This document shows positions 3,807-42,997 of a DNA stretch of 51,776 bases, piece after piece. The position numbers and the translations under genes are program-made. The notes beneath the pieces were generated by a model that was given only the letters and a program-made list of their open reading frames with translations, ran no database searches and was not told the DNA's origin. Numbering within the stretch: the stretch's first letter is position 1; the number at the start of each line of letters is the position of its first letter. The stretch is from a virus, in the IMG/VR virus record IMGVR_UViG_3300025133_000153, positions 1-51,776 of that record. One strand, written 5' to 3'.

Positions 3807-6800
3807 ATGCCTAGACGATTTGTTAGATCTCAGCATCCCGGCGATATGGGTGGCAGGTGGGTAGAAGACGAATATCAGGCTGGAGCAGAAGGTGGGCGAC
3901 AGGCCACTCAAATGAGTGAGCGCGACATTAAGCGCATGATAAAGGAGTCTCAGGAACGTCAAGCGGCAGCAGCCTTAGCAGATCAGGCAGAGGTGTCCTT
4001 GGATGAATCATTAGAGTATGTGCATGAGCTTCCCAGTGATGACAGGCCGACAGTAGCAGATTATAAGCGGATGAAGGCAGAGCGACAGCCTTGGCGAGCC
4101 CCCATGCTTCTTTCGGAAGGGCGTAAGCCAGAGCCCGAAGGTCCGGTGTATCCTGACTTGCCGTCTTCTCTTGGAATTGACACATCAAAACTATCACTTG
4201 GGGCTGCTATTGCAGCGGCACAAGATGGGACTTTAGGAAAACCTGAAGAAGTGCCCTTTTCCTTATTAGGTGATGGGTTCCGTCCCTCAGCGGAGGATAT
4301 AAAAGAAGATATTTCTGATCTGCGAGACGAGCTTCCCTTATCTACATTAACTAACGAGGATCATTACCTATCAGGATTTCCATGGCAAGATACTGGTGGC
4401 AAGTTCTCTGAACCAGTAAGTCAAGAACAGGGAGATTATTCTATAAGTGTGGACGATATAGAAGAGTCTCCTGACGGTCTTTCTCGCGTAACTATTACGG
4501 TTACACTGCCAGATGGCTCCGAAAGAAGAATTATTAAAGAATCTACTGAACTCAGAGTAGCAACAAGCATGGCTCAAGAGGAAGCGGCGGGGATAGCTGC
4601 TCGTTATAAGCGTGATGTAAGAGAAAGACCGGGAAGTTTTGGTGTGGAAGATCCACATCATAGGGAAATTGGGAATGCTTATGGTGGAATTATTGGCCTA
4701 GCAGGTGGTGGCTATGTGCCGATGTATGCATCTGGTGGAGTCCCCGGTTATGGAATAGGTGGATTCCTGAAGGGACTAGGTAAGTTTGCACTGAAGGCAG
4801 CACCCATGGCACTTAGTTTCATTCCAGGCGTTAGCGGGTTGTCTGGATTAGCTAAGGCAGGAATAGGTGCTGCTCTTACAGGCGCAAGTGATCTAGCTGA
4901 AGGAAAGGGTTTTGACCCAGGAAGTATGTTGAGGGGTGCTACCAGAGCACACGGGATGGGAGAAGCTGTAGATAGGATGAGAGGTATTGAAGGATTAAAG
5001 GGTGAAGGGTTGTGGGGAGGGATTGGGAAGATGTTGACTGATAAGGATGTTGGGAGAGAAGCAATGGGAGCACTTGCCGACATTCCGTTTGGTGAGGCTC
5101 TGGCATTAGGTGTAGGTGAGGCTGCTGGTCAACGTGCTGATGCAAGACAAGATCCTGGGAGCGGGAGTTTAGTTAACCCGATGGGTACTGCGGGTCGTAC
5201 AATGCCTGGACAGGCTCCCGCAGGTGCTGATCCTGCTGGATTTATCGCTGATCCTGCTGCCGGATATGCAGGCCAAATGACTTATGGTTCTCAGCAACCA
5301 GTTGTATATGAAGCAGCAGGTGGTGTAATCCCAGGCTTTCAGATGGGTGGATTCCCCGGAGAGGGGGCACTAATGCCGATGCCGGGAAAACAATTTGGCC
5401 GTAGCGGACCAAGAAGAGGGCGTAGCGGTATGTCGCGTCCGTCCCCTATGGCACCATGGGGTCCACCACCTCCGCCTCCACCTCCACAGATAGGGCCTCC
5501 ACAGGCAGGGCCAGGGTTCGCACCACCTCCGCCAACGGGTGGGGGAAGTGGTGGTCCTCCCGGTGGGGTTCAGCCGATAGGTCCGCAGGCGATTCCTGCT
5601 TCTGGAACGCCAATAGCACCACCGCCACCACCTCCGGGTGGTGGAGGTCAGCCAATAGCTCTACCAGCATTGGGGGGGCCACAACCAGCATCTCCTCCTC
5701 CTAGAATACCGGGGGCTATAACTGATGATATGCCTATGCCATCACCTCCACCCGCGCCTGTTGCACAACAGATACAAGATGTAATTCCAAATACACCACC
5801 GCCTCCGGCTGCTCCACCTATGCCGCCTCCACAGATGGCTCCACCTCCACCTCCACCTCCACCTCCTCCTATAGAGGAAAATGGTGCGGTTTGGCGTCCA
5901 CCACCTACTGCGTTGCCTAATGTTCCGCCACCTTCGGTAGCACCTCCACCTCTGCCTAAGCGTATACAGAAAAAGATAAAAGGAGGAAAGCCGCTTACTA
6001 AGAAAGATCAAAAGAAAATTGAGGAGGTTAACTTTGCTCCGGGTGGCAAATGGTTTGGAACTGGTGGTCCGGGTGCGGTTGCACCATCTGAAAGAGGTCC
6101 AGCACCTGCCTTTGATCCACCTCCTGCACAAGTTGGTGTACCTCAAGCTCAAGTTGATCCATCCATGGTGCCTGAGTGGGGAGATCTACAGCTTGATCCA
6201 CGGATGACACCACCTCCTCCAACTGATATAGGAAGTGCGCGTCGGCCACCCGGAGGATATGTAAGACCGGGAGGTACGGGTGGAGACTTAGGCGGAGATG
6301 TAGAAATTGACCTTGAAGGTATTGAGGATGTACTACCAGACACGGCAGGCAGGGCTAAACGTAAGAAGTCTAAGAAAGCTAGAGGACGAGAAGAACAACA
6401 ATTACCTGATTTCCCAGAAGATGTTGAGCCAGGGGTTCCCGGCGTACCATCCGGCTATAATCCCTTAACAGGACAAGGATATGTACCGCCGGGTGGACAA
6501 GGTGGTCCTGAAGGTCGCGGAGATATTGGTGGGCCTGCTGCTCCAACGGGATACAATCCTTTGACTGGAACGGGATATGTACCGCCGGGTGGCGTACCAC
6601 AGGAACCTGCACCATTACCGCAAGGAGCGGGATTAGCCGATACCAGTGGTGGTGTCAAACCTACGGATTGGCTAAAGGCTGAGTATAAGAGACAAAATCC
6701 TGATTCTGAGTTTAGTGATGCTGATATTATTCGGTGGGCCGCTAGAACTGGTACACCTAATACCGAAGGTGGCTATGAGGGTGGTACACAAGCTGGTGTT

Positions 6801-39401: not shown

Positions 39402-39431
39402 TGCTACCTCCTCATATCTTTTGTGAAAGAC

Positions 39432-40974: not shown

Positions 40975-41002
40975 GATATTCCCTCTTCTTTGGTGAAAGA
41001 AA

Positions 41003-41123
41003 CATAGGTGTGGGGAGTCGAACCCCAAGTCAGTACGTCTACTGACTGAGCCCATCAATCCCAGTGTATTGATATGTGCTAACCCAATAGCCTCTAGGAC
41101 TACATTGACATTGCTCCACCTAC
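41003..41123 (-). ncRNA. Candidate tRNA-like structured RNA
   Basis: Read leftwards, GTAGGTG (41123-41117) can pair with CACCTAT (41010-41004), like a seven-pair acceptor stem with one G-U. The 3' half abuts a canonical T-arm: TGGGG, loop TTCGACT, CCCCA (41027-41011). A seven-pair hairpin, AGTCAGT/ACTGACT (41047-41028), abuts that arm like a long variable arm. ATCAAT/ATTGAT (41073-41054) and a weaker GTAGTC/GGCTAT hairpin occupy the D-arm and anticodon positions. At 121 nt, with no normal anticodon loop and no CCA, it is not a standard tRNA. A tRNA relic or an attachment or packaging site are alternatives. Confidence 0.45.
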
Positions 41124-41224
41124 GAAACTGAGTCAGGTAGGTGCAACCACTCTAAGTAGGACTCAGTACTGCGCCTTTATACTACGGTTTTCTACTTAGA
41201 GCCTATGCGGTATTTGCTATACCG
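41117..41224. repeat. Run of three inverted repeats next to the tRNA-like element
   Basis: CACCTAC/GTAGGTG (41117-41123 and 41137-41143, loop 13), CTCTAAGTAG/CTACTTAGAG (41150-41159 and 41192-41201, perfect ten pairs, loop 32) and CGGTAT/ATACCG (41208-41213 and 41219-41224). The first shares one arm with the tRNA-like acceptor stem, so the two folds exclude each other. Confidence 0.7.
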
Positions 41225-41547
41225 TACTTCCGCCATGCTGTGGAGTCGGTCGAGTCCCTAGTTGACGCATATCTTGAGGAGTATTTACCCCTAGATATCG
41301 TGTGAGTGTAATCACTCAAGAACTGACCTTCTTGCCTAGCTCTACGGTTGGCATGGGAACCGGAATCGTAGGAAGGAGTAAACCGAACCCGGAACCTACG
41401 CCACAGAGTCTCAGCATGGGGAGATATGATCTTGTCAGCGGTTAACTGACATCGCTCGCCATCTCCAGTGCAAGCAAACTTAGCCTCCCGGTAAGCCTTG
41501 GGATTGATTAACCGTAGCTTAGAAGGCACTATGTTGTATCGGGCCAT
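41203..41547 (-). CDS. Basic Ser/Thr/Arg-rich hypothetical protein
   Basis: A 114-aa frame starting MARYNIVPSKLRLINPKAYREAK at ATG 41547 with AAAGG upstream. It is strongly basic, with CTGDGERC and an Arg/Ser/Thr/Tyr-rich C-terminal half (THTISRGKYSSRYASTRDS). It diverges from terS with only 33 bases between starts. No family is recognised; basic charge fits nucleic-acid binding. The 3' end runs into a hairpin, so it might also be part of a non-coding region. Confidence 0.5.
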   Translation of the reverse strand: MARYNIVPSKLRLINPKAYREAKFACTGDGERCQLTADKIISPHAETLWRRFRVRFTPSYDSGSHANRRARQEGQFLSDYTHTISRGKYSSRYASTRDSTDSTAWRKYGIANTA

Positions 41548-42051: not shown

Positions 42052-42067
42052 AACTTTCATGAAAGTT
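42052..42067. promoter_or_regulatory. Palindromic operator-like site 1
   Basis: AACTTTCATGAAAGTT is a perfect 16-base palindrome. It shares the core CTTTC-NN-GAAAG with sites at 42107 and 42986, as expected for a dimeric repressor. Confidence 0.6.
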
Positions 42068-42106: not shown

Positions 42107-42118
42107 CTTTCGCGAAAG
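42107..42118. promoter_or_regulatory. Palindromic operator-like site 2
   Basis: CTTTCGCGAAAG, a perfect 12-base palindrome, lies between terS and the terminator of the reverse-strand cassette gene. Confidence 0.6.
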
Positions 42119-42985: not shown

Positions 42986-42997
42986 CTTTCACGAAAG
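42986..42997. promoter_or_regulatory. Operator-like site 3 before the cassette gene
   Basis: CTTTCACGAAAG matches the CTTTC-NN-GAAAG core, with a non-symmetric centre. It lies 33 bases upstream of the reverse-strand start codon, where a repressor could block transcription. Confidence 0.6.

What the first reader, a model, noticed from the sequence alone, without database searches (positions are those of the whole stretch)
41003..41123. Expanded tRNA-like cloverleaf that is not a normal tRNA
A perfect T-arm with TTCGACT loop directly abuts a seven-base acceptor half, and a matching GTAGGTG occurs 107 bases upstream on the same strand. Hairpins fill the D, anticodon and long variable-arm positions, with no spacer between variable arm, T-arm and acceptor, as in real tRNAs. 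Yet the element is 121 nt, has no standard anticodon loop and encodes no CCA. It could be a tRNA mimic made as the leader of the leftward small-gene operon, a decayed tRNA, or an attachment or packaging signal.
Basis: partly seen in the sequence, partly recalled or inferred. Interest (0 to 1): 0.8.

Follow-up and report, generated by a model that had tools for sequence, protein, structure and literature searches.

The report
Oversized tRNA look-alike in marine phage
A marine phage carries, between two small genes, a 121-letter RNA that copies the top half of a transfer RNA but replaces the decoding half with a long arm, the same layout shown here for a fifty-year-old unexplained RNA of phage T4, so it can help ask what such fake tRNAs are for.

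Summary
On the minus strand, 41124-41003 is an 8-bp acceptor helix, a long arm (GAGC...GCTC), a perfect 8-bp variable-like hairpin and a canonical T-arm, with no spacers. The minimum-energy fold of the isolated element is exactly this (-45.2 kcal/mol, z -3.3). The combination occurs once in the window and in 0 of 200 random windows. Directly upstream lies an unreported H-type pseudoknot (10+8 bp, 41201-41127) whose loop carries CACCTAC, an anti-acceptor that can steal the acceptor's 5' strand.

It is not the leader of the operon: it fills the gap between gene 1 (114 aa) and gene 2 (45 aa). Relatives lack it. Only one near-identical contig has it, so covariation cannot be tested on the element itself. 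There is no integrase, no attB match, no tRNA score and no CCA.

The closest known thing is T4 RNA C ("species 1 RNA", function unknown). Ten Tevenvirinae copies support the same acceptor / long arm / variable hairpin / T-arm layout with compensatory changes in all four helices. Another unrelated viral contig (L100) carries an independent 132-nt example in a tRNA cluster.

Best reading: an expanded tRNA mimic of T4 RNA C type, probably cut out by host tRNA-processing enzymes. Expression and function are inferred, not shown.

The parts
41203..41547 (-). gene 1 (114 aa), first gene of the leftward operon, divergent from terS; stop codon 1 nt before the pseudoknot
   Evidence: tblastn homologues with 54-61% identity over most of their length in relatives L136, L143, L146, L150, L194
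41192..41201 (-). pseudoknot stem 1, 5' arm CTCTAAGTAG
41160..41167 (-). pseudoknot stem 2, 5' arm ACTGAGTC (stem 2 abuts stem 1, 0-nt loop)
   Evidence: 10+8 bp pseudoknots with inter-stem loop <=1 nt: 0 in 60 random windows
41150..41159 (-). pseudoknot stem 1, 3' arm CTACTTAGAG
41137..41143 (-). anti-acceptor CACCTAC in pseudoknot loop 3, complementary to the acceptor 5' strand
   Evidence: partition function without pseudoknots: anti-acceptor 0.96, acceptor 0.02; energies -64.7 against -63.6
41127..41134 (-). pseudoknot stem 2, 3' arm GACTCAGT
41003..41124 (-). expanded tRNA-like element (122 nt with terminal C-G pair)
41117..41124 (-). acceptor helix, 5' strand CGTAGGTG
41048..41116 (-). 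69-nt long arm GAGC...GCTC in place of D and anticodon arms
41028..41047 (-). variable-like hairpin, 8 bp, GACG loop
   Evidence: pair probability 0.87-1.0 even in the long transcript
41011..41027 (-). T-arm TGGGG-TTCGACT-CCCCA
   Evidence: pair probability 0.78-0.99 in the long transcript
41003..41010 (-). acceptor helix, 3' strand CACCTATG; no CCA follows
40986..41001 (-). small hairpin TTCTTT-CACC-AAAGAA just before the Shine-Dalgarno-like GAGGGA (40985-40980)
   Evidence: fold of the region; similar hairpins before small genes in relatives L146 and L204
40837..40974 (-). gene 2 (45 aa), first gene after the element
   Evidence: identical protein in L122 although the DNA differs at two synonymous sites

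Best explanation
An expanded tRNA mimic ('top-half tRNA') of the same architectural kind as phage T4 RNA C. It is transcribed inside the leftward operon between genes 1 and 2. The acceptor/T-arm stack carries the features that tRNA-maturation enzymes read (RNase P at 41124/41123, RNase Z or exonucleases near 41003, possibly CCA addition). The decoding half is replaced by a long arm, so the RNA cannot decode. Processing would release a stable roughly 121-nt RNA and split the transcript, leaving gene 2's message with a 5' hairpin next to its ribosome-binding site. The upstream pseudoknot occupies the segment between anti-acceptor and acceptor and would favour the tRNA-like fold. Shown: sequence, fold, statistics, gene context, the parallel with T4 RNA C and with L100. 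Inferred: transcription, processing, stability and any role.
For: Fold with acceptor and T-arm, z -3.3. The layout does not occur in 200 random windows. Pseudoknot directly 5'. T4 rnaC, a Northern-verified RNA of unknown function (PMC9697503), has acceptor, long arm, variable-like hairpin and T-arm. Ten Tevenvirinae sequences show compensatory changes in all four helices: 90.5% of cells paired, 11 pairs changed on both sides, 0/500 shuffles as high. In L257 the acceptor, hairpin and T-arm are kept while the long-arm sequence is replaced. An independent 132-nt element with an 8-bp Watson-Crick acceptor, two arms, T-arm and no spacers follows tRNA-Met and tRNA-Arg in L100. Phage T-arms outside called tRNAs have an abutting 7-bp acceptor in 14 of 46 cases, against about 2 at shifted registers. 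Several non-tRNA RNAs, phage RNAs among them, are RNase P substrates (review PMC11143913).
Against: Only one near-identical second copy, so no covariation for this element. No tRNA cluster around it, unlike T4 and L100. No encoded CCA, which helps E. coli RNase P, though T4 RNA C lacks it too. The nested-only ensemble of the longer transcript favours the anti-acceptor hairpin, so the acceptor depends on an untested pseudoknot or on processing order. A covariance model of T4 RNA C does not find the window: analogy, not detected homology.
Confidence: 0.5

Rival explanations
1. A cis-acting leader switch of gene 2. The pseudoknot, anti-acceptor and tRNA-like fold are alternative states that control translation, stability or antitermination of the downstream small genes; nothing is excised and the tRNA likeness is a binding platform for a host tRNA-binding protein.
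For: The element fills the 228-nt space between the stop of gene 1 and the start of gene 2, ending 28 nt before the gene 2 start codon. The two states differ by only 1.1 kcal/mol without the pseudoknot. Hairpins next to Shine-Dalgarno sequences recur in relatives.
Against: No terminator is found in the region. The Shine-Dalgarno-like GAGGGA is not paired with the acceptor or T-arm strands in any fold computed here. Neighbouring small genes in relatives do without such an element. The canonical T-loop is not needed for a generic switch.
Confidence: 0.27
2. A decayed or interrupted class II tRNA gene (serine/leucine-like long variable arm) in which an insertion destroyed the anticodon domain.
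For: Long variable arm, canonical T-arm, G at the discriminator position.
Against: Even with the 36 nt removed there is no GG in the D-loop, the D-stem has 3 weak pairs, and the residue before the anticodon is A, not T. Default ARAGORN is negative and no RF00005 match is listed at E<=10, although one lower-scoring same-clan match was hidden. Four helices are intact, unlike random decay, and the long arm folds stably. The same layout is conserved in T-even phages.
Confidence: 0.13
3. A DNA-level site: attP overlapping a host tRNA 3' end, or a packaging or replication site made of inverted repeats near terS.
For: Inverted repeats near terS; a tRNA 3' end is a classical attachment site (general knowledge).
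Against: No phage integrase in the record. No exact match of the 3' 22-mer in 84,980 genomes. Relatives with the same terS/terL lack it. The T-loop consensus has no reason to exist in a DNA site.
Confidence: 0.04
4. Chance resemblance in an intergenic region.
For: Only one lineage has it. Inverted repeats are common in phage intergenic DNA.
Against: 0 of 200 random windows; fold z -3.3; ordered pseudoknot 0 in 60 random windows.
Confidence: 0.06

Closest known systems
T4 RNA C (rnaC, 'species 1 RNA', AF158101 70908-71046)
   Same: Size (139 against 121 nt); acceptor closing a long imperfect arm; perfect variable-like hairpin next to a canonical T-arm that abuts the acceptor; no anticodon; no encoded CCA.
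   Different: No detectable sequence homology. T4 RNA C sits in a tRNA cluster, has a short A-rich linker before the variable hairpin and a mismatched acceptor in most copies; an upstream pseudoknot was not looked for there. The window has no tRNA genes.
Expanded tRNA-like of viral contig L100 (5468-5337, minus)
   Same: 8-bp Watson-Crick acceptor, two arms, T-arm, no spacers, 132 nt.
   Different: The long arm is the second one, and it follows tRNA-Met and tRNA-Arg.
tmRNA (ssrA)
   Same: T-arm and acceptor without an anticodon; associated pseudoknots.
   Different: 121 nt, pseudoknot outside the tRNA-like domain; Rfam beta_tmRNA 7.9 bits against a cut-off of 84; ARAGORN tmRNA negative.
Plant-virus tRNA-like structures
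   Same: tRNA-like acceptor/T-arm with pseudoknot domains upstream (from general knowledge).
   Different: Those are 3'-terminal in RNA genomes and, in the best-known ones, use a pseudoknotted acceptor; here the acceptor is an ordinary helix inside a DNA phage transcript.
MALAT1 mascRNA
   Same: tRNA-like with a reduced cloverleaf, cut out of a longer transcript by RNase P (from general knowledge); best sub-threshold Rfam match, 16.6 bits.
   Different: Below the gathering score of 42.5; the weak match uses a different, mismatched acceptor strand; eukaryotic.

Membership tests
Canonical tRNA | 7-bp acceptor with abutting 5-bp T-stem and TTCRANY loop | tested here: met
Canonical tRNA | D-arm with GG in the loop | tested here: not met
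   best D-arm has 3 bp and loop ATGTCAA
Canonical tRNA | 5-bp anticodon stem with 7-nt loop and T before the anticodon | tested here: not met
   only with a supposed 36-nt intron, and then A, not T, precedes the anticodon
Canonical tRNA | Recognised by tRNA models (ARAGORN default, Rfam) | tested here: not met
T4 RNA C-like expanded tRNA mimics (architecture) | Acceptor, long non-decoding arm, variable-like hairpin, T-arm abutting acceptor, 115-150 nt | tested here: met
T4 RNA C (homologous family) | Match to a covariance model of rnaC | tested here: not met
   no window match up to E 10
T4 RNA C (homologous family) | Located in a tRNA gene cluster | tested here: not met
   no tRNA in the window
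T4 RNA C (homologous family) | Made as a discrete stable RNA in infected cells | not testable with these tools
   no RNA data for this phage
RNase P substrate | Coaxial acceptor/T-arm stack with single-stranded 5' leader | tested here: inconclusive
   the stack forms in the isolated element but competes with the anti-acceptor in the long transcript
tmRNA | tmRNA model match | tested here: not met
tRNA-targeted attP | Integrase gene and identity with a host tRNA 3' end | tested here: not met
   the host genome itself may not be in the collection

The most novel reading that the evidence does not exclude
Phages widely carry a class of top-half tRNA mimics (acceptor plus T-arm with an exchangeable non-decoding arm) that engage host tRNA-binding enzymes, for example as decoys for tRNA-cutting defences or as mRNA-splitting processing elements. 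In this phage a pseudoknot/anti-acceptor switch decides whether the mimic forms.
Probability: 0.2. Interest if true: 0.82.

Novelty: new variant of a known kind. Interest (0 to 1): 0.58.

Why it matters
T4 RNA C has been an orphan for about fifty years. Showing that it is a covarying, expanded tRNA mimic, and that similar layouts occur in unrelated phages, one inside an mRNA operon with a pseudoknot and no tRNA genes near it, turns an oddity into a possible class. It also gives concrete tests: RNase P cleavage, CCA addition, binding by elongation factor or synthetase, decoy activity against tRNA-cutting defences. Defences that read the acceptor end and T-arm exist (Cas12a3, PMC12851939), so a mimic lacking an anticodon but keeping the top half has a plausible use.

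Tried and rejected
(1) Covariation on the element: impossible. A covariance model of it finds nothing in 83 other sources, mostly TerL relatives plus four named phages, and the only other copy is identical. (2) T-loop hairpins in relatives L194 and L179: no acceptor; not homologues. (3) Pattern scan GGGTTCGANTCCCNCACCTA: wrong register; nearly all real tRNAs. Corrected scan: 109 called tRNAs/tmRNAs and 10 others, none of which showed a comparable expanded fold among those examined. (4) Pseudoknot core GAGTCCTACTTAGAG: 13 viral hits, none but L122 structurally similar. (5) Downstream gene 3 as bait: only L122. (6) attB: none. (7) Intron-containing tRNA: rejected on D-loop and anticodon-loop grounds. 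(8) Sequence homology with T4 rnaC: not detected. (9) Relatives of L100 for covariation: one identical copy and one in which only an ordinary tRNA is seen before the contig ends. (10) Nearest named phages by TerL (Pelagibacter HTVC027P, HTVC023P; 54%) lack it.

Full report
What is there. On the minus strand the region 41547-40837 reads: gene 1 (114 aa, 41547-41203), a 228-nt gap, gene 2 (45 aa, 40974-40837). Gene 1 is real: relatives encode it at 54-61% identity over most of its length. Gene 2 is probably real: the second copy, L122, differs from the window at two positions there, both synonymous. The gap itself has no difference between the two copies. It contains, in order, an H-type pseudoknot, the tRNA-like element, a small hairpin and a Shine-Dalgarno-like GAGGGA.

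The tRNA-like element. Acceptor CGTAGGTG 41124-41117 pairs with CACCTATG 41010-41003. A 69-nt arm (GAGC...GCTC, 41116-41048) stands in place of the D and anticodon arms. A perfect 8-bp hairpin (41047-41028) and a T-arm TGGGG-TTCGACT-CCCCA (41027-41011) follow without spacers. The MFE fold is this structure at -45.2 kcal/mol against -33.1 +/- 3.6 for shuffles. In 200 Markov windows of the same length, 71 T-arms appeared and none had an abutting acceptor; the window has one T-arm and it has both acceptor and hairpin. ARAGORN default and Rfam gathering find nothing.

The pseudoknot and the competing fold. Stem 1 CTCTAAGTAG/CTACTTAGAG (10 bp) and stem 2 ACTGAGTC/GACTCAGT (8 bp) interleave with 0 nt between the stems, loop 1 of 24 nt and loop 3 of 15 nt. 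Such pseudoknots with abutting stems occur 0 times in 60 random windows. Loop 3 contains CACCTAC, the complement of the acceptor 5' strand. Computed without pseudoknots, the transcript 41205-40975 prefers the CACCTAC:GTAGGTG hairpin (0.96) to the acceptor (0.02), while T-arm (0.78-0.99 per pair) and variable hairpin (0.87-1.0) persist. For 41201-41003 the energies are -64.7 and -63.6 kcal/mol. The 3' arm of stem 2 lies between the anti-acceptor and the acceptor, so forming the pseudoknot should block the anti-acceptor hairpin. This is an inference; no pseudoknot energy model was available.

Distribution. TerL relatives are mostly short viral contigs. The nearest named phages by TerL are Pelagibacter HTVC027P and others at 54-58%. 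In relatives with gene 1, the gene is followed directly by other small genes and the element is absent. A covariance model of the element finds nothing in 83 other sources, mostly relatives, nor in the whole records of four named phages. The element looks like a recent acquisition or a fast-changing module.

The parallel with T4 RNA C. T4 rnaC (139 nt) was followed up because of its size and T-arm. Ten sequences from T4 and other Tevenvirinae (seven genera) were aligned. The structure acceptor / long arm / variable-like hairpin / T-arm is paired in 90.5% of cells; 11 pairs have changes on both sides against 4.8 expected from shuffles, 0 of 500 as high; all four helices contain such pairs. The sequences are related, so the shuffle counts are not probabilities, but slid versions of the structure reach only 1-4 such pairs. 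In Yersinia phage TG1 the two U-U mismatches of the acceptor become U-A and C-G. In Salmonella phage CF-SP2 the long-arm sequence is replaced while the other helices are kept. T4 RNA C is seen on Northern blots, is expressed late and has no known function (PMC9697503). A covariance model of rnaC does not score the window, so the claim is shared architecture, not homology.

Other phages. Of 121 GGGGTTCGACTCCCC T-arms in viral contigs, 46 lie outside ARAGORN calls (some are tmRNA 3' ends). Fourteen of the 46 have an abutting 7-bp acceptor upstream, against 0-5 (mean about 2) at shifted registers. Some are unusual real tRNAs; L100 5468-5337(-) is a clear expanded mimic right after tRNA-Met and tRNA-Arg, and L058 (147 nt) is a likely one. 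The same arrangement as in L100 appears in a second contig, identical.

Mechanism proposed. The acceptor/T-arm stack is what RNase P, RNase Z and CCA-adding enzyme read (established knowledge); bacterial RNase P cuts several non-tRNA RNAs, including phage C4 and M3 RNA and T4 gene 32 mRNA (PMC11143913). Embedded between two genes, it would be cut out, giving a stable mimic and separating the messages. The cellular role (decoy, regulator or processing element) is open. Lack of encoded CCA is a caveat for E. coli-type RNase P, shared with T4 RNA C.

Verdict. Observation confirmed, interpretation partly supported, with added pseudoknot, corrected gene context and a named closest relative in architecture. 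Novelty: new variant of a known kind. The main weakness is that the window's own element exists in only one lineage, without RNA data.

Noticed in passing
L252 1908-2048 (T4 rnaC) and L253-L261: T4 RNA C is supported by compensatory changes as an expanded tRNA-like RNA; no Rfam family reached its gathering score on it, and the long arm is replaced by unrelated sequence in Gelderlandvirus CF-SP2 (L257).
   Followed up: yes
L099 1886-1966 (+): 81-nt element whose ends resemble the two ends of tmRNA (GGGGATGTAACGG...CGAC and GGACTGGGGTTCGACTCCCCACATCTCCA) with the mRNA-like part missing; possible tmRNA without its tag region.
   Followed up: no
L024 8736-8797 (+): 62-nt miniature cloverleaf: 8-bp acceptor, two small hairpins and T-arm, too small for a tRNA.
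   Followed up: no
L058, T-arm at 489 (+): 147-nt expanded tRNA-like with 8-9-bp acceptor, hairpins and T-arm, about 130 nt upstream of an odd tRNA call (four-letter anticodon).
   Followed up: partly
window 40988-40998, 39418-39428, 42054-42065, 42107-42118, 42986-42997: TTTCNNNAAAG palindrome-like sites are over-represented (8 matches against 1.8 expected) and cluster at 39.4-43.0 kb; similar hairpins sit before Shine-Dalgarno sequences in relatives L146 and L204. They could be operators or mRNA-stabilising hairpins.
   Followed up: partly
L194 1566 (-) and L179 1093 (-): Relatives carry extended hairpins with the T-loop sequence TTCGACT but no acceptor, in the leftward small-gene region.
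   Followed up: partly
L146 about 4290-4320, also L147, L148, L149, L185: Perfect 12-bp hairpin CAGGTAGTCAGG-TTCGAC-CCTGACTACCTG just after terS in one group of relatives.
   Followed up: no
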